Shown here: piece by piece, positions 1 to 47,564 of the stretch
Layout of the letters: every line of letters begins with the position of its first letter
Numbering within the stretch: the stretch's first letter is position 1
Assembly (NCBI RefSeq): GCF_000226095.1
Contig: NC_016473.1
Coordinates: 248,001-312,000, forward strand
Direction of reading: 5' to 3'
DNA from: Thermothelomyces thermophilus ATCC 42464
Lineage: Eukaryota; Ascomycota; Sordariomycetes; Sordariales; Chaetomiaceae
DNA length: 64,000 nucleotides
Program-made: the position numbers and the translations under genes
The notes under the pieces: model-generated
Told to the model about the DNA's origin: nothing
The model's input: the letters and a program-made list of their open reading frames with translations, nothing else
Databases searched by the model: none

Positions 1-3000
1 AACACGGAACTGTATAAATAGAATGGACGCTTGATTCGACTTGCCTAGTAGAGCGATAAGATAAGGGACAAGATAAGGGAACTCCGACGTATCGTAGAAA
101 CTATTAAAGAGGAATAGCCTATAATATACGATAGGCCTAATAGCTATACCAAGTATTTTGACGATTAGTAACTTAGCTACGATGTATAGAACCTAGAGTA
201 CTAGTTTATACGTATAAACTGTGGAAAAGATAAACATATATAGGAAAACTACTAGAAGAAACACTCCTACCTTAGCATTAGAGTACCTATAGTCTATATA
301 TAGTGGGAAGGATTTGGAAAAGAATTCTAATACCTTCTAGGTAACGCTACGCGACTATACCTACGATACGAGGCATATATACAAGTGCCCTAGTTCTAGT
401 ATATATTATACGAATGCCGATACTACTTTCGCGACAAATTCGAAAACAATTACTAGCCGACCTAACAAGGAAATAAGGACAGAAGCCTCTACCCTATAGA
501 ATAGGTCTATAATATAGGAAATGGAGCAGCTGAATTGCTCTAGAAGATCGAAGCCTACGATCTAGAAGGCATTATAGTAGTACTAAAACGAGCCTGGCCT
601 AGGTACTGCGGAATAAGACAAGATATATAGGACTTGTGCCGGAGTAATGACTGCCTCTACCACGTAGATAAAAAGAAATCGCGGATCTAGGAGCTTTAGC
701 TAAAGCTATAGTATATACAACGGAAAGTAGAATAGACCTAACAGTAGGAAGCTACTAGTACTTAATAGCTTATAGAAATAAGTACGATTAACGAAGCTGC
801 TATTAGCCAAATAACCGAAGAGGTTAGTACTGACCTAGGAAACAGGTTAAGGCCTTCCGAGGGGCCCGAAAACCATTAACGCCTATATAGCGGCAAGTAG
901 TAGCGTAGTATAGGAGGAACTAGCGTAAAAGACCATTATATCGAGACCTCCCGGCAGAAATATAGGAAATCGCTATAATCTTTAGGCGACAGTAGTAAGA
1001 TAAGTGATTATAGATAATAGCATAATAGAAATAGCACGAAATGCTCGTACTAGTAGATAGTAAAGTAGAGATAAACCTGATTTTACCGACACTTGTAAAT
1101 TAGCTATAGATACCCTAGAAAATGAAGCAGAAGTATAGTATAGTCAAAGGGCTATTTCTAATATAATAGGTATATAAGGAGACTAAACTAATTAACATTA
1201 CTATAATAGGGAAGACTATAGTAGTTATATTTAGTATTATAGATATAGGCAACGATAAAGATATAATATTAGGGTTACTATAGTATGAAGATTACGACCT
1301 AGATATTAGCTAGAAGAATAGTAGCCACCTACGACCCTAAACGGAGTTATATTTAACTAGCAAGATAGGGAGCGTATAAGGATCGCGAGCAGACGATACT
1401 TAGGGGAAGGCATATCCTATAGATCTATTACAAGAGACGGACAATGGTAGACAGACCACTATAGACTCTAGAAGAAGCGGTATAACGATACCGACATTAC
1501 GATAGGAGGAACGAGCTAAACTACCGATAGCTATTCTCTCCGTTAACGAATGTAGAGCACTATAACTAGAGTAGTAGGTTAAGACAGGAGAAATCGCTAG
1601 CATTACTATAGATAGAACCAAGTTTGTATACTATTAGAAAGCTAAGAGACAAGATAAGACTAGGGAAGTATTAAAGGAATATAAAGGATACCTAGCATTT
1701 AAACTAAAGTATCTAGAAGGATTACTAGAATATGGCCTATAGGATTATAAGATCAAGCTTAAGGAAGGAGTATGACTAAAGTTCTTTAAGATTTACTATA
1801 TAAGCTAGATATAAAACGAAGAACTTAAGCGATATTTAGAGGAGAATCTTTAAAGAGGATATATCTACCTATTGATATTGCTAGTAGGCTACCTAATCCT
1901 ATTTATACCTAAGAAAGATAGAAAGCTATAGTTATATATCGACTATTGGTAACTTAATAAATAGACCGTGAAGAACTAATACCTATTACTGCTAATCTCA
2001 CGGCTCCGAGATTAGTTAATAGGAGCCTAATATTTTACGTGTCTTGACTTGCCATCGGCCTATAACTATATATAGATCAAAGAAGGCAACGAGTAGAAAA
2101 CGGCCTTTAGAATACCCTATAGCTACTATAAGTACCTCGTTATGCTATTTAGACTTATAAACGCGCTAGTAACGTTCTAAGCCCTGATTAATCAAGCTAT
2201 CCGACCCTTTCTCGACAAATTTATAGTATATTATCTTGACGATATACTTATCTTCTCCAAAACGATAAACAAACACTAGAAGTATATAAGAGTAGTACTA
2301 GATGTATTATATACGTATAAGCTATTAGTTAACAAGGAAAAGAGCAAATTCCATGTTAGGAAGACAGTGTTTTTGAGATACGAGATATCCCTAGGACAAA
2401 TTCGGATAGAACCTTTAAAGGTTAAAGCTATTACAGATTAGTTATAACTGACGTTAGTCACGGAAGTACGAAGTTTTATCGGATTTACAAACTTCTACTA
2501 GATGTTTATTAGGAACTTCGGAGCGATCGTACGACCTTTATATAAACTTACCAAGAAGAACGCTAAATTCTAATAGGAAGAGTAATATAAGCAAGTATTT
2601 ATATAGATCTATAACGCTATTACTAAAGATCTAGTACTAGTATTACTAGACCCTAAGAAGCTATTTAAGGTAGAAACGGACGCTTTAGACTACGCTATCG
2701 GAGGATAGTTAGGATAACGAAACGAACAAGGAAAGCTACATCCTATAGCCTTCTTTTTAAAGAAGCTCGATAGACTACATCTTAATTATCCGATCTATAA
2801 CAAGGAACTACTTACGATTATCGAAGCTTTTAAAGAATAATAACTATACCTTAGTAGTATAATCGAACCAATATAAGTATATATAGATTATAAGAATTTA
2901 TAATACTTTATAATGATAAAAGAGCTTAACAGACGATAAATACAATAGGTAGAATTCCTTATAGAATTCAATTTTGAGATCTGCTATAAGAAGGGTAAAG

Positions 3001-15398: not shown

Positions 15399-16215
15399 TT
15401 ACTTTATAACCTCCTCCCCCTTATCTTCCCTTTCTAAAATAATAGTTATAGTATTAAGAGTAAGGTTATTATAGTTATAGACTAGGTATACTATATACTT
15501 GGTAGGTAAGGAAGAGTAGTAGGTATAGGAATGGCTAAAGTTAATTAGTATAGGTATAGGGCGTATAGAGGTATAAGAGCAGGTATAGGAAGTAGGTAAT
15601 AGAGTACCTAGGATATAGGTGACAAGGGTAGCATTAGTATTAACTAAAGTCAATATATTCTTATTTATATATTATATCTAGTATAGTATATTATTATTCT
15701 ATATTATAATATAGTATATATACTGCCTAGTAGCTTATAGAGTAAGGTCAGGGGTAGTAGTAGGCTAGATAATATTACTATAATAGGTAGGGGTATTAGG
15801 GATAGGGGCGGTAGTAACTAGGGTAAAGTTATTATTAGAGTAATAAGAACTTACAGCTTAGGTAGGGGTAAAGGTAGCCTATCTAGGTAAACGGTTAGAC
15901 TAGGTAGCCTTAAAGAGTATAGAGAACAAATATACTAGTATGGAGAACTTAGGCATTAGGATAGTATAATAAGCGCCCTAGTTAGTAGTCTTATAGTAGG
16001 TAGGGGAGGTAAAGGTAGTACTAGTATTATAATAACCTATAATTTTCTTAATATCTATATATAAGTAGGGGTTATTAGCCTAGAGCTATAGATCCTAAAT
16101 ATAGCTCCTATAATATATATAATATATTATATAAGAAGTGCCTTAACCTTAGATATATTTTACCTTATTACTTCTTAGAAGTTAGTTAATATATAATAGA
16201 TAATATTACTACTTC
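15399..16215 (-). pseudogene. antisense frame in the 3' region of 2a
   Basis: On the strand opposite to gag-pol, a frame matches those at 41260-42178 (2c) and 27520-28397 (2b). The last 84 codons (15653 to 15399) are still open: they include TNATLVTYILGTL and end in an acidic tail rich in Glu and Lys. Upstream codons carry TAG/TAA at places that are Gln in a better copy. I do not recognise the family. It lies between the pol chromodomain and the 3' LTR and would need its own promoter, possibly in the LTR antisense direction. Confidence 0.55.
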
Positions 16216-16892
16216 TTAGGCTATAGTTTAAACTCCTTATTAAAGGAATTACCCTTAATAATATATCTATTAAAGGAAAGGTTAGCATTTTTATATTATA
16301 AAATAAGGAGTTAATCTATACCTTATATATATATATAATAATTAAAAAATTAATATAGGTAAAGGAAAACTTATATAATAATCTTTATTCTTATTATTAC
16401 TAAGATAGTAACTATTATTATTACTATTAAGTAAACTAATAGCTATTAATATACTAGATAGATACTAATTAAAAAAAAACTTAAAGGTATAATAAGGGTA
16501 TAGGGAGTAAGTATAATTATAAGAGGCAGGGGTAGTTAGAGAGTATAGAAGAAGAAGAGAGTTAATTATAAGAGAGAGAATTAGGAGAGGGAGGGAAGTA
16601 GAAAAGGTATTTATAGGCGTTAGGAAGAGGGTAATAAGGGAGTATATAGGACCTAGGCAAATTGCTTATTATATATATAACTTACTACTATATATATAGG
16701 TTATATTATTCTAATAATAAAGGGAAGGAGGTATAGGTTTCATCTGAACTTAAATAGCTACCTATTTATATATAATATATTATTATATATATAGGTTATA
16801 TTATTATAGTATTAAAGAGAAGAAGGTATAGAACCTGCTTATATACCTAATATATATAGCACGTTATAAGGCAGGTCGGCCTAGTAACTATA

Positions 16893-26877: not shown

Positions 26878-27519
26878 TACCCCCCCCCCCTTCTCTTTTT
26901 CGTAGTTACTAGGCCGACCTACCTTACGTTATGCCCCTATATTAGTCCTATAAGCAGGTCCTATACCTTCCTTTCTTTATCATTATAATAATGTAACCTA
27001 TATATATAATGGCGTATTATATATAAATAGGTAGCTATTCGAGTTTAGATAAAGCCTATACCTCCTTCCCTTTATTATTAGAATAACGTAACCTATATAT
27101 ATAGTAATAAGTTATATACGTAATAAATAGTTTGCCTAGGTCCTATATACTCCCTTATTACCTTCCTCCTAATGTCTATAAATACCCCTTCTTCTTCCCT
27201 CCTCCTCCTAATTCTCTCTCTTATAACTAACTCTCCTCTTCCTTTATACCATTTAAGCGCCCCTGCTTCCTATAACTATACTTATTACCTATACCTTTAT
27301 TATATCCTTAGGGTTTTTTCTTAATTAGTATCTATCTAGTATATTAATAGCTATTAGTTTATTTAGTAATAGTAGTAATAGTTATTACCTTAGTAGTAAT
27401 AAGAATAAAGATTACTATATAAGTTTTCCTTTACCTATATTAATTTTTAGCTATTATATATATCTATATAAGGTATAGACTAATTCTTTATTTTATAGTA
27501 TAAGAATATTAACCTCTCC

Positions 27520-28397
27520 CTTAGTAAGTATATTATTAAGGGTAACTCTTCTAATAAGGAGTTTAAACTATAGCTTAAGAAGTAATAATACTACTTATTA
27601 TATATTAATTAACTTCTAACAGATAATAAGGTCAAGTATATCTAAGGCTAAGGCACTTCTTATATAAGTTACTATACTAGTTAGAGAAGCTATATTTAAG
27701 ATCTATAGCTCTAGGCTAATAACCCTTACCTATATATAGGTATTAAGAAACCTATAAATTATTATAATACTAGTATTACCCTTACCTCCCCTACCTACTA
27801 TAAGATCGCTAACTAAGGCACCTATTATACTATCCTAATAGCTAAGTTCTCTATATTAGTATATTTATTCTCTATACTCTTCAAGGCTACCTAGTCTAAC
27901 CACTTACCTAAATAGGCTACCTTTGCCCCTACCTAGGCTATAAGTTCTTATTACTCTAATAATAACTTTACCCTAGTTATTACCGCCCCTACCCCTAATA
28001 TCCCTACCTATTATAGTAATATTATCTAGCCTATTATTACCCCTAACCTTACTTTATAAGCTACTAGGTAGCTTATATACTATATTACAATATAGAATAA
28101 TAATATACTATACTAGATATAGTATATAAATAAAAATATATTAACTTTAGTTAATACTAATGCTACCCTTGTTACCTACATCCTAGGCACCCTATCGCCT
28201 ACTTCCTACGCCTACTCCTATACCTCTATATATATACCCTATACCTATACCAATCGACTTCGGCCGTTCCTATACCTATCGCTCTTCCTTACCTGCCAAG
28301 TGTATAGCATGCCTAGTCCACGATTATAAGGACCCTACCCTTGATACTATAACTATCGTTTTAAAGGGGGAGGATAAGGAGGAGGAGGTTATAGAGT
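27520..28397 (+). pseudogene. antisense frame in the 3' region of 2b
   Basis: Homologous to 41260-42178. Conserved blocks include ANQGTYYTIL, TNATLVTYILGTL (fully legible near 28155-28190) and the acidic end EDKEEEVIE. TAG/TAA replaces Gln at the same positions as in 2c. A 4-bp net insertion near 28230 (ATATATATA) shifts the frame in this copy. The sense strand does not show a comparable frame here. Product unknown. Confidence 0.6.
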
Positions 28398-39200: not shown

Positions 39201-40342
39201 TACTAGATCTATTACTTTAAGAGATTAATAACCTTTAGTATTAATAACTTTAGGATAGGGATACTCTTTAATTACTATATTATATGAGGAATGATCTAAA
39301 TAACCTAAAAGGGAATAATATTAGGGTAAATCTATCTATATTTAGTAAAATCCTATACTAAGGTAACCTCCTAGTTCTATAGGACCTATATAAAGAGTTC
39401 CTTCTCCTAGTTAGATAGAAAGCTTCCTATAGATATAAATAATATATTAAGCTATTTAGCTATAAGTTATATCCTAGGTTCTAGGTCCGAAAACTATAGT
39501 ATAATAAGGCTATCCTACTTTAACCTAAACTTTATCTTCTTAATAGCTTCCCCTAGGTACCGTTCCTACTAGTTAGGGTTACCGTTAGGTACCGAACTAT
39601 CGCTAATAGCTATATCTATAGGGTAAACTTTTCTAGTTATAGACTTTCGTATAGTAAATATCTATACCTCTTATAACTCTTTTCTAACCTCTAATATAAG
39701 TTTCCTAAGCATTTTTTATCCATTTAGATAGCCAGACTCCTCTATTTTGCCCTCCGTTTCCTAGTATCTCTATTTTAAAGTGTCCTATCTAGTAAGACAA
39801 AATATCGAAACTTTAGTAAGTATATTAATAAGAGGTAAATAAGAAATCCTTAGTATTATATTAAAAATGGCTTTATTAGCCTAATTATTAATAAATCTAA
39901 GTAGAATTTCGCTATCCTAAATATTAGTAAATGTAGGGGTAATAGTAGTTATTATAACTAGATATTAAAGTTCGTCCCTTATAAGTTAATATCTTCTTTC
40001 GAACGTTATTTTAGCTATAATATCTAAGATAACTAACGTTTTAATTAATCTATTCCTAGTAATAATATTTACTATAACTAGATAGCTAGCTTTATAGTTA
40101 AATATTAGGCTTATATTATAGATAAATAGTATACCTAGTAAGATCTAGTAGCTACTAGTATCTCTATCTAAAACGAAGAAATGCTTATAGATTAAGACTA
40201 CCCTTAAGATAATTATATTAACCGTTTCCTTAGTAAATGGCCTATTATTATAAAGACCCTAGGAAATTACTATTATTATCTATATAAGGAGATAGTATTT
40301 CTATACTAGGCTAAAGGTAATTATATTATATTTAGATCTAAT
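36300..40342 (-). pseudogene. pol of family 3: RT, RNase H, integrase (downstream part)
   Basis: On the - strand, RT runs ~39500-38700 with YHVYLDNIYIKG (~38820-38785; YLDD/KGP type seen in fungal gypsy elements). RNase H runs ~38640-38000. Integrase runs ~37900-36500: zinc-binding and KGREATYQRVTNYYY region (~37570-37530), first Asp in KYLDI (~37400), NKGSKFKGEV (~37220-37190; Asp to Asn), and SPYNSKANNISKA (~37140-37105; catalytic Glu to Lys by G-to-A). The C terminus with VKVGNLILVYN (~36690) and YYLETLNSITI (~36580) matches the integrase SH3-like end. Copy 2c splits it at 40342/47565. Gag lies at 47570-50560. Confidence 0.85.
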
Positions 40343-40666
40343 TATAATATGCTAGCCTTATAGCAACTGCAGATAAGCGTACAATATTCTATTCGACTAC
40401 CTTAGGGAGGAAAAAGAGAAAGAACACAAGAGTTATACGGAGGGGCGCCTTTTAAGTGTGTACGTTATAACCTAGGTAGGGCCCGGTTAGGCTCCGGGTC
40501 GGGCCCTAACCGGGCCTTGGCCGTGTGTCTACCAGACGAGTTACGAACGAGTAACGAACGCTCTACGGACCCGTGGGGCGTAGGTGAGTAGGGTAGGGTA
40601 GGTCCGTTCCGTGCCTAGGTAAAGCCCGGGCATTATCCAGCCTGGGTGTAGCCCGGGCCTATAATA
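40343..40666 (-). repeat. 3' LTR of 2c
   Basis: 324 bp. It holds a strong inverted repeat, GGCCCGGTTAGG (40480-40491) with CCTAACCGGGCC (40505-40516), and a GTTAC ... GTAAC pair near 40540-40555. It differs from the other LTR mainly by C/T and G/A changes. The C-run after it (40668 onward) is the complement of the polypurine tract. Confidence 0.93.
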
Positions 40667-41259
40667 TACCCCCCCTCTTTTTTCGCGGTCGCCGGGCCGA
40701 CCTGCCCTATATCGCACCTTATATATCGGTCCTACAAGCGGGCCCCGTGCCTTCCTTCCTTTGTTACTATGATAATATGACTTGTATATATAATGGCGTG
40801 TTATACGTGAATAGGTAGCTGTTCGAGTTCGGATGAAACCTGTACCTCCTTCCCTTTATTGTTAGAATAACGCGACCTGTGTATGTAGTAGTGAGTTATA
40901 CGTGTAATAAGTAGTCTGCCTAGGCCTGGCATATTCCCTTACTACCTTCTTCCTATACTTATAAATATGCCTTCCTCTTCCTTCTTCCTTTTAATTTTTT
41001 CTTACCTATAACTAACTCTCTTCCTTTATACCCTTTAACTGCCTCTGCCTCTTATAATTACGCTTACTACCTATACCCTTGTTATACCTTTAAGTTTTTT
41101 TTTTTTTAATTAGTATCTATCTAATATATTAATAGCTATTAGTTTACTTAGTAGTAGTAATAGTAGTTACTACCTTAGTAATAATAAGAATAAAGATTAC
41201 TATATAAGTTTTTCCCCTATCTATATTAATTTTAGCTATTATATATATATATAGGGTGT

Positions 41260-42178
41260 AGATTAACTTCTTATTTTATAGTATAAGAATGCTAACCTCT
41301 CCCTTAGTAAGTATATTATCAAAGGTAACTCCTTTAATAAGGAGTTAGAACTATAACCTAAGAAGTAATAATACTACCTGCTATACGTTAACTAACTTCT
41401 AAAAGGTAATAAGGTCGAGTATATCTAGGGTTAGGGTACCTCCTATATAACATGCTATAAAAACTATAGGAGCTACATTTAGGATCTATAGCTCTAGGCT
41501 AATAACCCCTACCTATATATAGGCATTAAGAAAATCGTAGGTTGTTACGATGCTAGTACCGCCCTTACCTCCCCTACCTACTACAAGACTGCTAACCAAG
41601 GCACCTATTACGCCATCTTGACGCCTAAGTTCTCCGCGCTAGTACGTTTGTTCTCTACGCTCTTCGAGGCCGCCTAGTCTAACCGTTCGCCCGGATAGGC
41701 TGCCTTCGCCCCTGCCCCGGCTGTAAGTTCTCGTCGTTCTAGTAACGACTTTGCCCTAGTCGCTGCCACCGCCGCCCCTAACACCCCTACCTGTCGCGGC
41801 AACATCGTCTAGCCTGCCACCAGCCCTAACCCTACCCTATAAGCTACTAGGCAGCTTATACGCCACGCTATAGCGTAGAACGATAGCATACTACGCCAGA
41901 TGTAGTATACGAACGAGAATATATCGACTTTGGTCGATACCAATGCTACCCTCGTTACCTATATCCTAGGCACCCTATCGCCTGCCTCCTACGCCCGTAC
42001 GAGCGCCTCTATATGCCCCGTACCTGTGCTAATTAACTTCGGCCGTTCCCACGCCTGCCGCTCTTCCTTGCCTACTAAGTACGTGGTGCGCCCGGTCTAT
42101 GACTATGACGACCCTACCCTTACTGCTATAACTATTGTTTTAGAGGAGGAGGATAAGGAGGAGGATGTTACAGAGTAA
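41260..42178 (+). pseudogene. antisense gene of family 2 (best copy), product unknown
   Basis: About 300 codons on the strand opposite to gag-pol, between the pol end and the 3' LTR. The last 83 codons (41930-42178) are open; upstream codons hold ~15 stops, all TAG/TAA that fit CAG/CAA (for example GCCTAGTCT, GGATAGGCT, CGTCTAGCC). Codon use in 41540-42178 is GC-rich at third positions, unlike the AT-rich surroundings. Visible features are a Cys-containing N-terminal part (TCYKNYRSYI near 41450, Tyr perhaps from Cys), an Ala/Pro/Ser-rich middle, TNATLVTYILGTL, and an acidic C terminus EEEDKEEDVTE. No signal peptide, transmembrane helix or known domain is evident. Homologous frames occur in 2a and 2b. 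Function unknown. Confidence 0.65.
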
Positions 42179-42339
42179 GCGCGTTATACTCTAGTTAGTA
42201 TATTTGTTTTTATTTTTATAATTAGATTATCTCTATAACGCGTCTATAATGTATTTATAACGTGTTTATAACGCGTCTGTTGCTTATTTGCCTTAGGTTT
42301 GCCTACCTATATGTAAATTCTAAATTATTTATTTTTATA

Positions 42340-45300
42340 CCCTTTCCTACCTCCTATTTATAACTAGTCTATTATTATAATATATGTCTTTCTATTCCTA
42401 TTTAAATGTATTAAGTGTCTTAGTATTTTTTAGATTTTTTAATAGTTCCTAAGTTAGGGTGTTATATCCCTTCTATTTTATTAATATATTACGTTAGTTT
42501 CCTCTTTCCTTTATATTCCTAGCTATAAAGATCGCTTTTACTTTATATTCTTCTTATAGTAGTCCCTCCTAGGAGATTTCTAATACTAGGTCTAGTTAGA
42601 AATCTGATATATATTATAAAGGTAGTAGGTCGGATATAATATACTTAATAAGATTAATATAGAAGGTAGGGTAGAGGCCCTAGGGAACATTTAGAGTTAC
42701 CGTTAGTAGTATTGGTACTATGATTACCTTATACTTAGTGTTAACCTAATCGAGTTTACGGCTAGGGTAATTAGTTTTAATGTTATATAAGGATAGCTAT
42801 ACTTTATCCCCTACCTTAAATCTCTTAGCTAGGCATTAAGAACGATTAGCGTTTTCTTGCTAGCGCTACTACGTATATACAATAGCGGCCTAGGTCTATT
42901 CTATACCTTCTCTTAGGTAGCGTAAGAAATTAGTAGCTCTTCCTTACGAGGTCAAGGCAGGAGTGTCTAGTAGGTTGGCAAACTATATTAGGCTTATATT
43001 ATAACTATAGAGGAGGTAGCTTACGCTTGTCCTAGTTACTATTAAGTTACGGTTATTAATTATAAGCTAGTATATAGGTAGATGTTTAGGCTAATCATAT
43101 TATATAAAGGAAACTATAATCTATAGAATAGTCTATACCTCCTAATTTATATATTCTATACCTCTATTTATCTATAGATAATAGGCTATTAATAGTAGCT
43201 ACTCGATCCTAATAGTCTTATAGAGAGTGGTCTAAAACTAGCTAAGCTAGTCCGAACCACGATTAGTAATAATTTATATCGGAAATTTATAAAACCGCTA
43301 CTATATGTCCCGGAACCAGAGTATATACGCCTCGGCTCCTATCGAGGACATGGCTTTAAGTTAGATATACTTTGATAGCCGGTCGGTGATTACTATAAGG
43401 TACTAGGGAGAATTCTCGTCTCGTATAGGGAGATCGACTATGAAATCGATAGAAATCTATTTCTAGAAGCGGTCGGCGATAGGTAGGGGCTAGAGGAGTC
43501 CTTATCGTAATTGATATAAAACCTTAGCCCTCTAATACGTATAATAGTTCCTTATAAATCTCTTTACGTCCAGAGATATAAAGTCTTAGTAGTAGTCCTA
43601 TTAGAGCATTTTAAATAACCTATTCCTCCCTAGGTAGCCTAACATAGGGGAGTTATAAATATATTAAAGGATAACAATAGTAAGTAGTTCCTATATAGGG
43701 AGCTAAAGTTTACCCCGGAACTAGAGAGTACCCTATATATTAAGGGAGTAGTCTATAATCTAGGTCTATACTATATTCGCTTCCTTCGGAAATTTTCGGG
43801 CCCCGTCCTAGATAGCCTAGAGCTAATATATATAATATTTGTCCTTAATAACTCCCTTATCCTATAAGGCTGCTAGCTATTCGTCTATAAAAATGGTGCT
43901 CCCCTTCGGTAGGTAGGATGCTTTAGATAACGTCGAGGAATCTGTCGTATCTATCCGGATAGTAGGGAGAAGTTATACTATATATTGTACGTCTTTGGGA
44001 AAGTCTTGTTCGCGACAGGATAGGGCGTTAAGGCAGGACGCTTGTAACCTAGGTTAGTAACGGAGCTTAAAGTTAAAGAGGGAGAGTATCTTGGCCTATT
44101 AAGCTTATCGCTTACTAATTAAATAAGGCTAGGAAAAGTATTTAAGGTTTTTATAGTTAATTAAGATCTAAAAGGGAGCTACGATACTATAGAGCTTGGC
44201 TAATTAGGCCTTTAGGTACAAGATAATTATAAGTAACTCCTTGTTATAGATTATATAGTTCCATTTAGCTAGGGTTAGTTTCGTAGAGTAATAGGCTATA
44301 GGGTATAGAACCCTATCTTCTCCTTACTAGGATAGGCACCTTCCTAGCGCCGTCCTAGAGCAATCTACCTCGAGTATTATCTCCCGTTTAGGGTCCTATT
44401 ATATAAGGATAGGTTCTAATATAAAGGCCGTCTTAAGGGCATTAAAGGCCTTCTATTCCTTAGTCTCCTACTAGAACGGGGTATTCTTACAGGTTAACTA
44501 TATTAAGGGTTCTATTAGCCTAGAAAAGTTAGGGATAAAGTCTTAGTAGAAATTAGCAAATCCTAGGAAGCTTTATACTCCCTAAACCTTCTATAGTACC
44601 TCCTACTCGTAGATGGCGGCTAGCTTTTCAGAGTCTAGACAGACCTAGGCCCCTACCTCTATAATATAGCTAAGGTACTTAACTTCTTTTATAGCAAACG
44701 TATACTTCTTAAGGTCTAGTATAAGTCTTACTTTCTATAACCTTTAGAGCATATCCCTTACTTACCTTATATAATCTTTCTTACTACCTAAAGTATAAAT
44801 TAAGATATTATCAAGATATACTATTATAAAGTCTCTAAGCATTAGACTAAGAGCATTATTAATATATTATTAGAAGGTTATAGGTATACCTATAAGTCTA
44901 AAGGGACAGATAAGCCACTTAAAGAGGCCGAACCGGGTCTAGAATGCTATTAAATGTTTGTAGCCCTCTACAATCCGGATACGGTAGAAGGCTGCCTAGA
45001 CATCTAACTTTATAAACTACTTAGCTCTAGCTAGGGAGCGAAGCGTTTCCTTAATAAGTAAGAGGGGGTATCGGTCTTGCCTTATAATCTTATTTAGCGC
45101 TCGATAGTCGATATAGAACCTCTAACCTCTGTCTACTTTCCTTACTAAGAGGATAGGGGCAGCGGCCGAAGAGGAGCTAGCTCGGATCTATCCCTTATCT
45201 AGCAAGTTAACGACTTGCTTTTAGACTTCTAATAAATGATCCTATGGCATATTATAGAGAGGTCCCTAAGGGAGTTCGGGGATCTTTCTGTCTGGGCCCT

Positions 45301-47172
45301 CCTTTAATTTGATGTAATGATTAGCTATGCTGTAATATAGGGGAAGTCTGCTAGCTTTCTCCTTATTAAAGAGGTTAGCAAAGTCGTAAAGTTTGTCTAG
45401 TAAGGTAACCTCTAACTCTATACTAGGCCCTAGTTAGGTACCTTTATTCCCTATATTTTCTCTATTAAATTGGTATCTTAATTCTAGGATAGTTATTATT
45501 TCCTAGATACTAATAACTAAGAAGGTATTAGAAGTCTTCTTCTTCTATACCTTCTAAACTATACCTATAAAGACTATACCTATAATTTAGGAGATTCCTA
45601 TCTGTCTTGTTTACGAAGAGATCTTATAGATAAATAATCCTAGTTATATCCCGATTTTAAGAATGCCTATATATATATCTAGTCTAACCTCCTGGTGTTC
45701 TATCTATAGAAGACCTAGTATAATGTTATATACAAGTCCTAGGACTATATAAAATGTAGCCTAACTCTCCTAGCCATCGATATCTATCGTAACATAGGCT
45801 ATCTAAGTAATCTTCCGGTCCCGTTATAGCCTAGTTATAGTCTTAAGGGTATATATAGTAGGCAAACTTATCTACTCGATTCCAAGCTTCTAGTATATTC
45901 TCTCGCTAATAACGCTATAACTAGAACATCTACTATCTATTTGAGCGTTTATAAAGCTAGTAGAGTTAAAGAAGATTAGAATGAAAAAAGGAGGTCTATC
46001 TATTTTTTTACTAATCTCTATAAACTTATCTTCTAGGTAGTTGTAATCTTCTAGCCCCCTTACAAGACTTTGCTCGGAGGCTACTCTTTTCTCTGCTTAC
46101 CGTCTTCTTCGTTAGACAGGTTATTATCTTCCTTCTAATCCTTAGCCTCTAAGGTATTAATGTCGATTCTTAGCTAGTTCTACTATACTAGCCTTAAAGT
46201 AGGGGCAAAGTAATACTTAGTAATAAAGTAACCCTTCTACCTATACTAAATATACGCTCTAGCTGCCTATCAGGCTATATATACTTCTAGACTAACCTAT
46301 TTTACCTATAGGGCGTTACCCCTACGTTTTCTTGCCCTATCCTTATTAGGTCCCTTTTTCTATAGGTTAGTATATAATAAGTTAATTCTAGTTATTAGTA
46401 TATCTCCTTTTACATCCTTTTCTCTCTATAGTTCAGGTGCTACCTACTACCCCTATATCTACTAATACTTGTCATTAAGCCAAAGAGCCTCGAGATCTAT
46501 AGTAATCTTATAGTATTTCTTAACCACCATTACGTAATTATCCCGGGGAATCCCTTATCTAATTGCTATATATTTGAGTTTCAGAGAGAGGCATTGTTAT
46601 AATTTGATTAGGTATAGCTCGTCACTCTAAAGGAGACTACCTACCTTCGATAGCTTAGCCTTAAACCGAACAATAAAGGTAGCAAACAGTTCGTCGTCTC
46701 TCTATTAAAGGAATTCTAGTTCCAACAGGGCTACTATCTTCTTATAGGGGTCGGAGAAGATGCTCTTAAGATATTAGAGGAACTTAGTTAGGTTATACCT
46801 AACTTTTAAGCCTATAGATTTATAGTAGGCTATAACCTAAGTCTATACCTAGTATATAAGGTTTCCCTAGATAAAGACCTATTAGTTGTAATTAGAGCCG
46901 ATAAAATCTCTGTTAGCTATAAGGACATGTTCTATTATACTCTTCTATACTATAAAGAGTTCCTTTTTGCCATCGAAAGGTTGACCGGTTAGGAGACGCT
47001 TCTACTACGGCCGCTAAGCTTTAAGGGGCACCTTAGCCGACTCAGGGGTCAGGATAGGTTAGGTTTAGGATGCTCGGAGAGTGTCGATTATTACGTTCTA
47101 CTGTTCCACTACTACTTAAAGGGAGCAGACAAGCTCCTATAATTCCGCTAAGCCCGAGGGCCCGTGTACCAT
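42340..47172 (-). pseudogene. gag-pol polyprotein of family 2 copy 2c
   Basis: The ATG at 47170-47172 (- strand) starts gag MVHGPSGLAEL. Gag runs to ~46200 and includes a basic RARKRRGN region (~46330) and a degraded zinc knuckle (KGYFITKYYF, ~46235). Retropepsin follows near 45940 (IDSRCSSY, from DSG) to ~45600. RT runs ~45240-44500, with LLVRKVDRG, FYIDYRALNKII (~45105-45065) and the YLDD box as YLDNILIY (~44820-44795). RNase H then runs to ~44000, integrase ~43900-42700, and a chromodomain ~42640-42430. It keeps more of its original codons than 2a: stops are at Gln and Trp, and there are few frameshifts. A host promoter in the right LTR would have driven it. Confidence 0.9.
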
Positions 47173-47198
47173 CGAATCCGTTATAACTACATTGTCAA

Positions 47199-47217
47199 TA
47201 ACTCCCTTAGGGAGTTA
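47199..47217 (-). promoter_or_regulatory. leader palindrome of 2c
   Basis: TAACTCCC-TTA-GGGAGTTA on the + strand, between the 5' LTR and the gag ATG. It corresponds to 10348-10366 in 2a, where both arms changed symmetrically. Confidence 0.55.
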
Positions 47218-47240
47218 CTACCGGTAGAAGGTAGTCAAAA

Positions 47241-47564
47241 TGTAATATGCTAGCCTTATAGTAACTATAGATAAGCGTATAATATTCTATTTGACTACCT
47301 TAGGGAGGAAAAAGAGAAAGAACATAAGAGTTATATAGAGGGGTGCCTTTTAAGTGTATACGTTATAACCTAGGTAGGGCCTGGTTAGGCTCCGGGTTAG
47401 GCCCTAACCGGGCCTTGGCCGCGTGTCTACCGGACGAGTTACGAACGAGCAACGAACGCTCTGCGGACCTGTGGGGCGTGGGTGAGTGGGGCAGGGTGGG
47501 TCCGTTCTGTGCCCGGGTAAAGCCTGGGCATTGTCTAGCCCGGGTGTAGCCTAGGCCTATAACA
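47241..47564 (-). repeat. 5' LTR of 2c
   Basis: 324 bp. It starts TGTAATATGCTAGCC and ends GCCTATAACA on the + strand, giving TGTTATAGG ... GCATATTACA on the sense strand, with the canonical TG/CA ends still intact. It is the best-preserved family-2 LTR of the window. Confidence 0.94.

What the first reader, a model, noticed from the sequence alone, without database searches (positions are those of the whole stretch)
41260..42178. Antisense gene inside a chromovirus, kept in all three family-2 copies
Between the chromodomain end of pol and the 3' LTR, the strand opposite to gag-pol carries a ~300-codon frame with GC-rich third positions, an Ala/Pro/Ser-rich middle and an acidic end. Homologous frames sit at 27520-28397 (2b) and 16215-15399 (2a). 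Interior stops fit CAG/CAA to TAG/TAA, as expected for a gene hit by RIP, and the sense strand shows no comparable frame. I know of no standard gypsy component encoded like this. It could be a captured host gene, an accessory regulator, or a silencing suppressor; function is unknown.
Basis: partly seen in the sequence, partly recalled or inferred. Interest (0 to 1): 0.78.

Follow-up and report, generated by a model that had tools for sequence, protein, structure and literature searches.

The report
Decayed antisense gene in a retrotransposon
A family of decayed mobile elements in a heat-loving fungus carries an extra gene written backwards behind its main gene, and other, still intact elements in the same genome have open genes in the same place, so this looks like an accessory gene of these elements rather than chance.

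Summary
The frame is real. In the Ty3/gypsy element at 40337-47562 (pol on the minus strand) the plus strand carries a frame of about 300 codons, 41276-42178, tail-to-tail with pol. Every copy examined is full of TAG/TAA, so stop counts alone prove nothing. Tests that ignore the C>T/G>A decay (RIP) do: 3 indel events in 41300-42199 over about 39 copies, against 77 in the next 100 bp; gaps between three subfamilies inside the frame only in multiples of three; best amino-acid conservation in exactly this one of six frames (0 of 300 shuffles reach it in each of three comparisons). The frame follows 92 of 95 pol 3'-end rows in the genome, none on the same strand. Two stop-free chromovirus families in the same genome carry open antisense genes at that site (18 of 18 and 15 of 15 rows), not detectably related to this one. 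Such genes are a known kind: plant aORF-3R genes, and brtn of Boty elements in Botrytis. This is a new member, with no relatives found outside this genome. Most likely it encoded an accessory regulator of the element; function is inferred. A captured host gene or silencing suppressor has no support here.

The parts
41276..42178 (+). antisense protein-coding frame (about 300 codons; 5' end unresolved between about 41258 and 41285; TAA at 42176-42178)
42179..42300 (.). indel-rich gap between the stop of the antisense frame and the C-terminal end of pol (tail-to-tail)
   Evidence: 77 indel events in 42200-42299 over about 36 copies; median distance 139 bp between the two matches
42302..46099 (-). 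pol region (protease-like motif by eye, RT, weak integrase, chromodomain-like end by eye), broken by stops
44660..45142 (-). reverse transcriptase, Pfam RVT_1
   Evidence: E 6.6e-20
46100..47234 (-). region expected to hold gag (no Pfam match in the decayed copy)
   Evidence: inferred from position
40337..40664 (-). 3' LTR (in the pol sense)
47235..47562 (-). 5' LTR (in the pol sense)
40665..41275 (.). leader between the 3' LTR and the antisense frame; indel-rich, no second indel-free block; where an antisense promoter would have to lie if not in the LTR (inferred)
27478..28396 (+). same frame in copy 2b, with a 4-nt insertion near its end
15405..16316 (-). same frame in copy 2a

Best explanation
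SHOWN (by comparison of copies): a protein-coding gene on the strand opposite to pol, lying between pol and the 3' LTR and tail-to-tail with pol, is a regular part of this retrotransposon family, and every copy examined is now broken by stops of the RIP type. INFERRED: in the active element it was transcribed from its own antisense promoter in the 3' LTR or the 0.6-kb leader, and made a roughly 300-residue accessory protein: a helical N-terminal part, an Ala/Pro/Ser-rich linker, a coiled-coil helix (oligomerisation) and an acidic tail. Its most likely job is to act in trans on the element's own life cycle in the nucleus (LTR transcription, or the chromatin and integration step), like the role proposed for the antisense genes of plant LTR elements. 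My odds: about 0.85 for an antisense protein-coding accessory gene, about 0.4 for a nuclear regulator specifically, about 0.1 for any one finer mechanism.
For: Indels: 4 events inside the frame over 41 other rows; 3 events in 41300-42199 over about 39 copies, against 77 in 42200-42299 and 2.9-17.3 per copy-kb in the seven bins 40600-41299; pol bins 0-1.1. Gaps inside the frame in the printed pairs between subfamilies A, B and C are 3, 9, 12 and 15 nt. Purine/pyrimidine differences, which RIP cannot make, by codon position: A/C 30, 24, 50 (p 0.005), B/C 18, 18, 37 (p 0.007). Amino-acid conservation above a neutral expectation is highest in this frame in all three comparisons: AB 100 (next 64), AC 137 (next 73), BC 151 (next 60); on subsets, 0 of 300 column shuffles reach it in each. 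It follows 92 of 95 pol C-terminal rows, with none on the same strand. 47 of 53 fetched copies keep the register to the stop, and one more to its last few codons. Two other chromovirus families have stop-free antisense frames at the same place: 18 of 18 rows (second exon) and 15 of 15 rows. Decay of such a gene is seen directly in one pair of copies: 69 of 93 changes are C>T or G>A, and the 4 stops lie at 3 CAG codons and 1 CGG codon. Heptad pattern in windows covering residues 195-236, overlapping a long helix (186-231) of a low-confidence model.
Against: No open copy of this subfamily was seen: the 42 rows have 14-23 stops from 41261 on, terminal stop included, and no start codon is resolved. 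A/B differences alone show no significant codon-position bias (17, 15, 22; p 0.49). Two simple strand tests did not favour this frame: the synonymous share of single transversions was 0.11 here against up to 0.20 in a minus-strand frame, which also had the same raw residue identity (0.590 against 0.588), and the four-fold-site test on A/B went against the plus strand and leaned to the minus strand (p 0.014), with A/C and B/C neutral. One LTR bin, 40500-40599, is also indel-poor (0.57 per copy-kb), so low indels alone are not unique to genes. The C subfamily is two copies only. No Pfam or outside protein relative and no confident fold (pLDDT 33.9 and 31.5). Weak matches to DUF4760 (E 0.011) and HU-CCDC81 (E 0.064), each in 1 of 18 rows, and to K88 fimbrial proteins (best E 0.005), are taken as chance. 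No expression data. The open antisense gene of L094 is not detectably homologous to this one.
Confidence: 0.8

Rival explanations
1. The region codes on the sense strand: an extension of pol or a separate env-like ORF, and the antisense frame is its mirror image.
For: The sense frame that shares third positions with it scores second or third in the conservation test (AB 64, AC 55, BC 51); the synonymous-transversion share and the A/B four-fold-site test (p 0.014) lean to the minus strand. Another sense frame has as few stops (17 per copy).
Against: The antisense frame scores highest in all three comparisons and beats all 300 shuffles each time. The third-position-sharing sense frame has 29 stops per copy. 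The two stop-free sister families have their extra gene on the antisense strand at this site.
Confidence: 0.07
2. The antisense transcript itself, not a protein, is the working part: it pairs with gag-pol RNA and controls the element through dsRNA and small RNAs.
For: Raised as a possibility for antisense ORF elements in PMC7264820 (passages read). In the two stop-free families the antisense frame overlaps the end of the pol frame by 125 and 194 nt (coordinates).
Against: Amino-acid-level conservation and multiples-of-three gaps are not needed for an RNA. It could act in addition to the protein.
Confidence: 0.08
3. A recently captured host gene riding in the element.
For: No relatives found outside this genome or in Pfam, as expected for an odd capture.
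Against: No stop-free full-length homologue in the genome: the only stop-free rows are 4 pieces of 27-56 query residues. The frame is shared by three subfamilies, the third 39-43% identical in residues, so it is not recent in the element.
Confidence: 0.04
4. Chance: a long frame left over from GC-rich, indel-poor DNA under RIP.
For: Stop counts are no better than in other frames; one LTR bin is also indel-poor.
Against: Sharp indel limits at both frame ends, codon-phase bias in two of three comparisons, frame-specific conservation.
Confidence: 0.01

Closest known systems
brtn, the additional antisense gene of Boty-like Ty3/gypsy elements of Botrytis cinerea (Zhao et al. 2011, Virology 417:248; not held, known here only through citations in PMC7264820, PMC8365987, PMC4227169 and a similarity mention in PMC5987419)
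   Same: Filamentous ascomycete gypsy element with a chromodomain in gag-pol (PMC4227169, passages), one extra gene on the opposite strand between pol and the 3' LTR (PMC7264820)
   Different: Sequence of BRTN not available here, so homology was not tested; the gag-pol beside one brtn is called potentially functional (PMC4227169), while this family is decayed
Plant antisense aORF-3R genes (maize Grande gene23, rice RIRE2, Silene Retand, PvRetro13)
   Same: Same place and orientation, in most copies of a family; some products nuclear (PMC7264820, sections 5 and 7; PMC11963269, abstract)
   Different: Other host kingdom; no TRP28 or other Pfam domain found here; said to be about as conserved as other element proteins, whereas this one separates subfamilies that RT does not
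Open antisense genes of two stop-free chromovirus families in the same genome (L093, L094; found here)
   Same: Same site, same strand relation, tail-to-tail with pol; their decayed copies fill with TAG and TAA like this frame
   Different: Cys-rich N-terminal part followed by a coiled-coil-like stretch; L094 shows no detectable homology to this frame (hhalign probability 0.1%; L093 not compared)
HTLV-1 HBZ (deltaretroviral antisense gene; recalled; PMC7264820 mentions only the antisense promoter in the HTLV 3' LTR)
   Same: Antisense gene at the 3' end of an LTR element
   Different: No bZIP match; no homology claimed

Membership tests
aORF-3R (antisense additional ORF between pol and 3' LTR) | Lies between pol and the 3' LTR | tested here: met
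aORF-3R (antisense additional ORF between pol and 3' LTR) | Antisense to pol | tested here: met
   RT on the - strand; best-conserved frame on the + strand, though two weaker strand tests disagree
aORF-3R (antisense additional ORF between pol and 3' LTR) | Present in most copies of the family | tested here: met
   92 of 95 pol C-terminal rows; starting from RT, 64 of 104 rows at the expected distance, 13 farther, 27 none, 2 same-strand neighbours
aORF-3R (antisense additional ORF between pol and 3' LTR) | Conserved as a protein | tested here: met
aORF-3R (antisense additional ORF between pol and 3' LTR) | Transcribed from an antisense promoter | not testable with these tools
   no RNA data
brtn of Boty-like elements | Sequence homology to BRTN | not tested
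   BRTN sequence and the 2011 paper not held; three protein searches with this frame returned no Botrytis protein
Chromovirus (chromodomain Ty3/gypsy) | Chromodomain at the end of pol | tested here: inconclusive
   No Pfam match in the decayed copy, a motif seen only by eye; the sister element L093 matches Pfam Chromo at E 5.2e-15
Envelope-like gene | Sense orientation after pol | tested here: not met
   best-conserved frame is on the opposite strand
bZIP antisense regulator (HBZ-like) | Basic region plus leucine zipper | tested here: not met
   no bZIP family among Pfam matches at E up to 1 in the 18 rows scanned; rows are decayed

The most novel reading that the evidence does not exclude
Antisense accessory genes at the pol-3' LTR junction are a standing, fast-changing component of chromoviruses in filamentous ascomycetes: at least two protein families without detectable relation (this one, and a Cys-rich coiled-coil one that is still open) occupy the same site in different element families of one genome, and this one separates subfamilies A and B (median identity 71.5 against 57%) that reverse transcriptase of the same copies does not separate at all (median 80 in both). 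That would fit trans-acting regulators or anti-silencing factors in an arms race with host genome defence, or gene exchange between elements at this site.
Probability: 0.3. Interest if true: 0.72.

Novelty: new member of a known kind. Interest (0 to 1): 0.52.

Why it matters
The function of antisense genes in LTR elements is called unknown in the review read here (PMC7264820). This genome of a cultivable fungus holds a decayed antisense gene family with 122 matching rows and, beside it, two element families with stop-free antisense frames in 18 of 18 and 15 of 15 paired rows. That makes the question whether such genes are expressed, and what they do, directly testable, and it shows how such genes can be recognised under heavy RIP-type decay without repairing any sequence.

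Tried and rejected
Stop counting as proof: rejected, since the six frames overlap and pol itself looks no better. Synonymous share of single transversions and four-fold-site enrichment: uninformative or leaning to the minus strand; I weigh them below the score test because RIP transitions change the codon context, but they stand against my reading. A/B transversion bias alone: not significant. Three protein searches: only MYCTH_93007, or nothing. Pfam and PDB sequence searches: weak hits only, except Chromo in L093. Two structure predictions: too poor to use, so no fold search was run. Bacterial promoter and terminator scan of the leader: nothing, and not suited to a fungus. Elements lacking the frame: of the 27 RT rows without it, 5 were fetched; one (L091) breaks off inside pol into another repeat, and 4 have no match to window 40300-43500 in the fetched stretch, so they look like broken or nested copies rather than elements without the gene. 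The 3 exceptions among 95 pol C-terminal rows were not followed up. dN/dS of the two open sister genes: NG86 worked, YN00 failed.

Rows dropped before counts: one search used 95 of the 109 rows (those reaching query residue 155 or more); rows are not copies, and some copies give two rows. One search used 104 of 150 scored RT rows (1051 candidates, so a capped list). One search left out two further RT rows free of stops but in short frames (353 and 253 codons); the first lies about 2.1 kb from a decayed antisense row. 3 of the 15 rows of the L094 family lie in pol frames shorter than 1287 codons. One search covered only the second exon of the L093 gene and is capped at 150. One search used only RT rows typed in that I had judged to pair, 36 A and 13 B after pairing. 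One search used 12 A or B rows against 6 B or 2 C rows. Alignments A1, A2, A3 hold 18, 38 and 18 rows. L087 was counted with B.

Full report
WHERE IT IS. The window lies in an unnamed 38.7-Mb genome of 7 contigs. The only database protein matching the frame is MYCTH_93007 of Thermothelomyces thermophilus ATCC 42464, whose longest contig is 5454242 bases, the length of contig C2 here, so I take the genome to be that fungus. The element spans 40337-47562, with LTRs of about 328 bp that are 90% identical. Its pol is on the minus strand: reverse transcriptase matches RVT_1 at E 6.6e-20, the integrase only weakly, and the gag, protease and chromodomain pieces not at all by Pfam. The frame in question is on the plus strand, 41276-42178, so it is antisense, behind pol and before the 3' LTR.

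WHY STOPS DO NOT DECIDE. The 42 rows aligned have 14-23 stops in the frame from 41261 on, terminal stop included, and 14 of 22 stop columns are shared by over 97% of rows. Other frames have similar numbers. But the control says the same of a known gene: the pol C-terminal frame has 31 stops per copy and 15 such columns. RIP-type decay simply saturates some sites. Differences between the window copy and the other 41 rows are 96.6% transitions.

WHAT DECIDES. (a) Indels. Over about 39 copies there are 3 indel events in 41300-42199, against 77 in 42200-42299 and 2.9-17.3 per copy-kb in the bins 40600-41299; pol has 0-1.1; one LTR bin, 40500-40599, is also low at 0.57. The frame is thus marked off at both ends. 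(b) Subfamilies. Genome-wide, 122 rows match the frame. I group the fetched ones into A (the window's), B (L071-L084, L087) and C (L085, L086), with C 39-43% identical in residues to the window copy. In the printed pairs all gaps inside 41276-42178 are multiples of three; outside they are mostly not, and a 1-nt gap sits at 41274. (c) Codon phase. Counting only purine/pyrimidine differences, which RIP cannot make, third positions differ most: A/C 30, 24, 50 and B/C 18, 18, 37 (p 0.005 and 0.007); A/B alone is not significant (17, 15, 22). (d) Frame. An RNAcode-like score of amino-acid conservation above a neutral expectation is highest in this one of six frames in all three comparisons (100, 137, 151, against next best 64, 73, 60), and on subsets 0 of 300 column shuffles reach it in each. 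Against this, two simpler strand tests did not favour the plus strand.

HOW REGULAR IT IS. Of 95 rows that match the C-terminal end of pol, 92 are followed within 900 bp by this frame, none on the same strand, at a median distance of 139 bp. Starting from reverse transcriptase, 64 of 104 rows have it at 1.5-4.5 kb on the opposite strand, 13 within 16 kb, and 27 have none; 2 same-strand neighbours turned up. The five of those 27 that I fetched look like broken or nested copies. 47 of 53 fetched copies keep the register to the stop, L078 to its last few codons; 2 fall out by indels and 3 break off early.

THE OPEN SISTERS. The same genome holds stop-free gypsy elements of other families, with RT about 35% identical to this one. 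In the two that I read, the end of pol (Pfam Chromo E 5.2e-15 in L093; the same motif by eye in L094) is met tail-to-tail by an open antisense gene: 212 codons in L094, and in L093 two exons around an apparent intron giving a continuous 196-residue reading (the intron is read from sequence, not from RNA). Both have a Cys-rich part followed by a charged, coiled-coil-like stretch (by eye); 63 of 175 aligned residues are identical, dN 0.73 and dS 1.26 by NG86. All 18 RT rows in a 1264-codon frame pair with a stop-free second exon, and all 15 RT rows of the other family that I listed (12 in a 1287-codon frame, 3 in shorter ones) pair with a stop-free antisense row, at 2075-2108 bp. Decayed copies of the same genes fill with TAG and TAA; in one pair 69 of 93 changes are C>T or G>A, and the 4 stops lie at 3 CAG codons and 1 CGG codon.

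WHAT THE PROTEIN MIGHT BE. No Pfam, PDB or outside protein relative was found, and the fold predictions are unusable (pLDDT 33.9 and 31.5). From the reading itself: a probably helical N-terminal part, an Ala/Pro/Ser-rich linker, a stretch with a clear heptad pattern around residues 195-236, and an acidic tail. That is the build of a self-associating regulator more than of an enzyme. I commit to an element-encoded accessory regulator that acts in trans on the element's own expression or integration, and mark this as inference. Among paired copies, RT identity to the window copy is the same in A and B (median 80% in 36 and 13 pairs; p 0.78), while the antisense frames differ (median 71.5 against 57%), so this gene changes fast or has been exchanged.

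WHAT IS KNOWN. Antisense ORFs between pol and the 3' LTR are a described kind in plants (Grande, RIRE2, Retand, PvRetro13), and in fungi in Boty of Botrytis and Sclerotinia (PMC7264820, passages and sections 5 and 7; PMC11963269, abstract; PMC8365987, PMC4227169, PMC5987419, passages). A survey of fungal LTR elements and a study of the Podospora element crapaud do not use the word antisense (PMC3248453, PMC10787394, term searches of the text). The paper on brtn itself is not held, so whether either family here is a BRTN relative is open. My paper searches listed no title or abstract that reports such a gene in Thermothelomyces or the Chaetomiaceae; the library lacks most subscription journals. 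Verdict: a real, decayed antisense accessory gene; a new member of a known kind; more interesting for its open neighbours than by itself.

Noticed in passing
L093:561-768 and 109-491 (-); L094:48-686 (-): Open antisense genes in two stop-free gypsy families of the same genome, Cys-rich plus coiled-coil-like, overlapping the end of pol tail-to-tail; stop-free in 18 of 18 (second exon) and 15 of 15 paired rows; L093 has an apparent intron.
   Followed up: partly
contig C2 of the genome (protein P0002): The annotated protein MYCTH_93007 (174 aa) reads like open pieces of one decayed copy of this frame joined around its stops; probably not a real gene. Its exact place was not looked up.
   Followed up: partly
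genome-wide, rows: The antisense frame separates subfamilies A and B (median 71.5 against 57% identity) that reverse transcriptase of the same copies does not (median 80% in both), so the antisense gene changes faster or has been exchanged.
   Followed up: partly
L091 (G000:C2:3144000-3146200) and L090 (G000:C3:2794000-2796200): Other high-copy repeats (46 and 40 rows in capped searches) where the 3' end of broken copies of this element would be.
   Followed up: no
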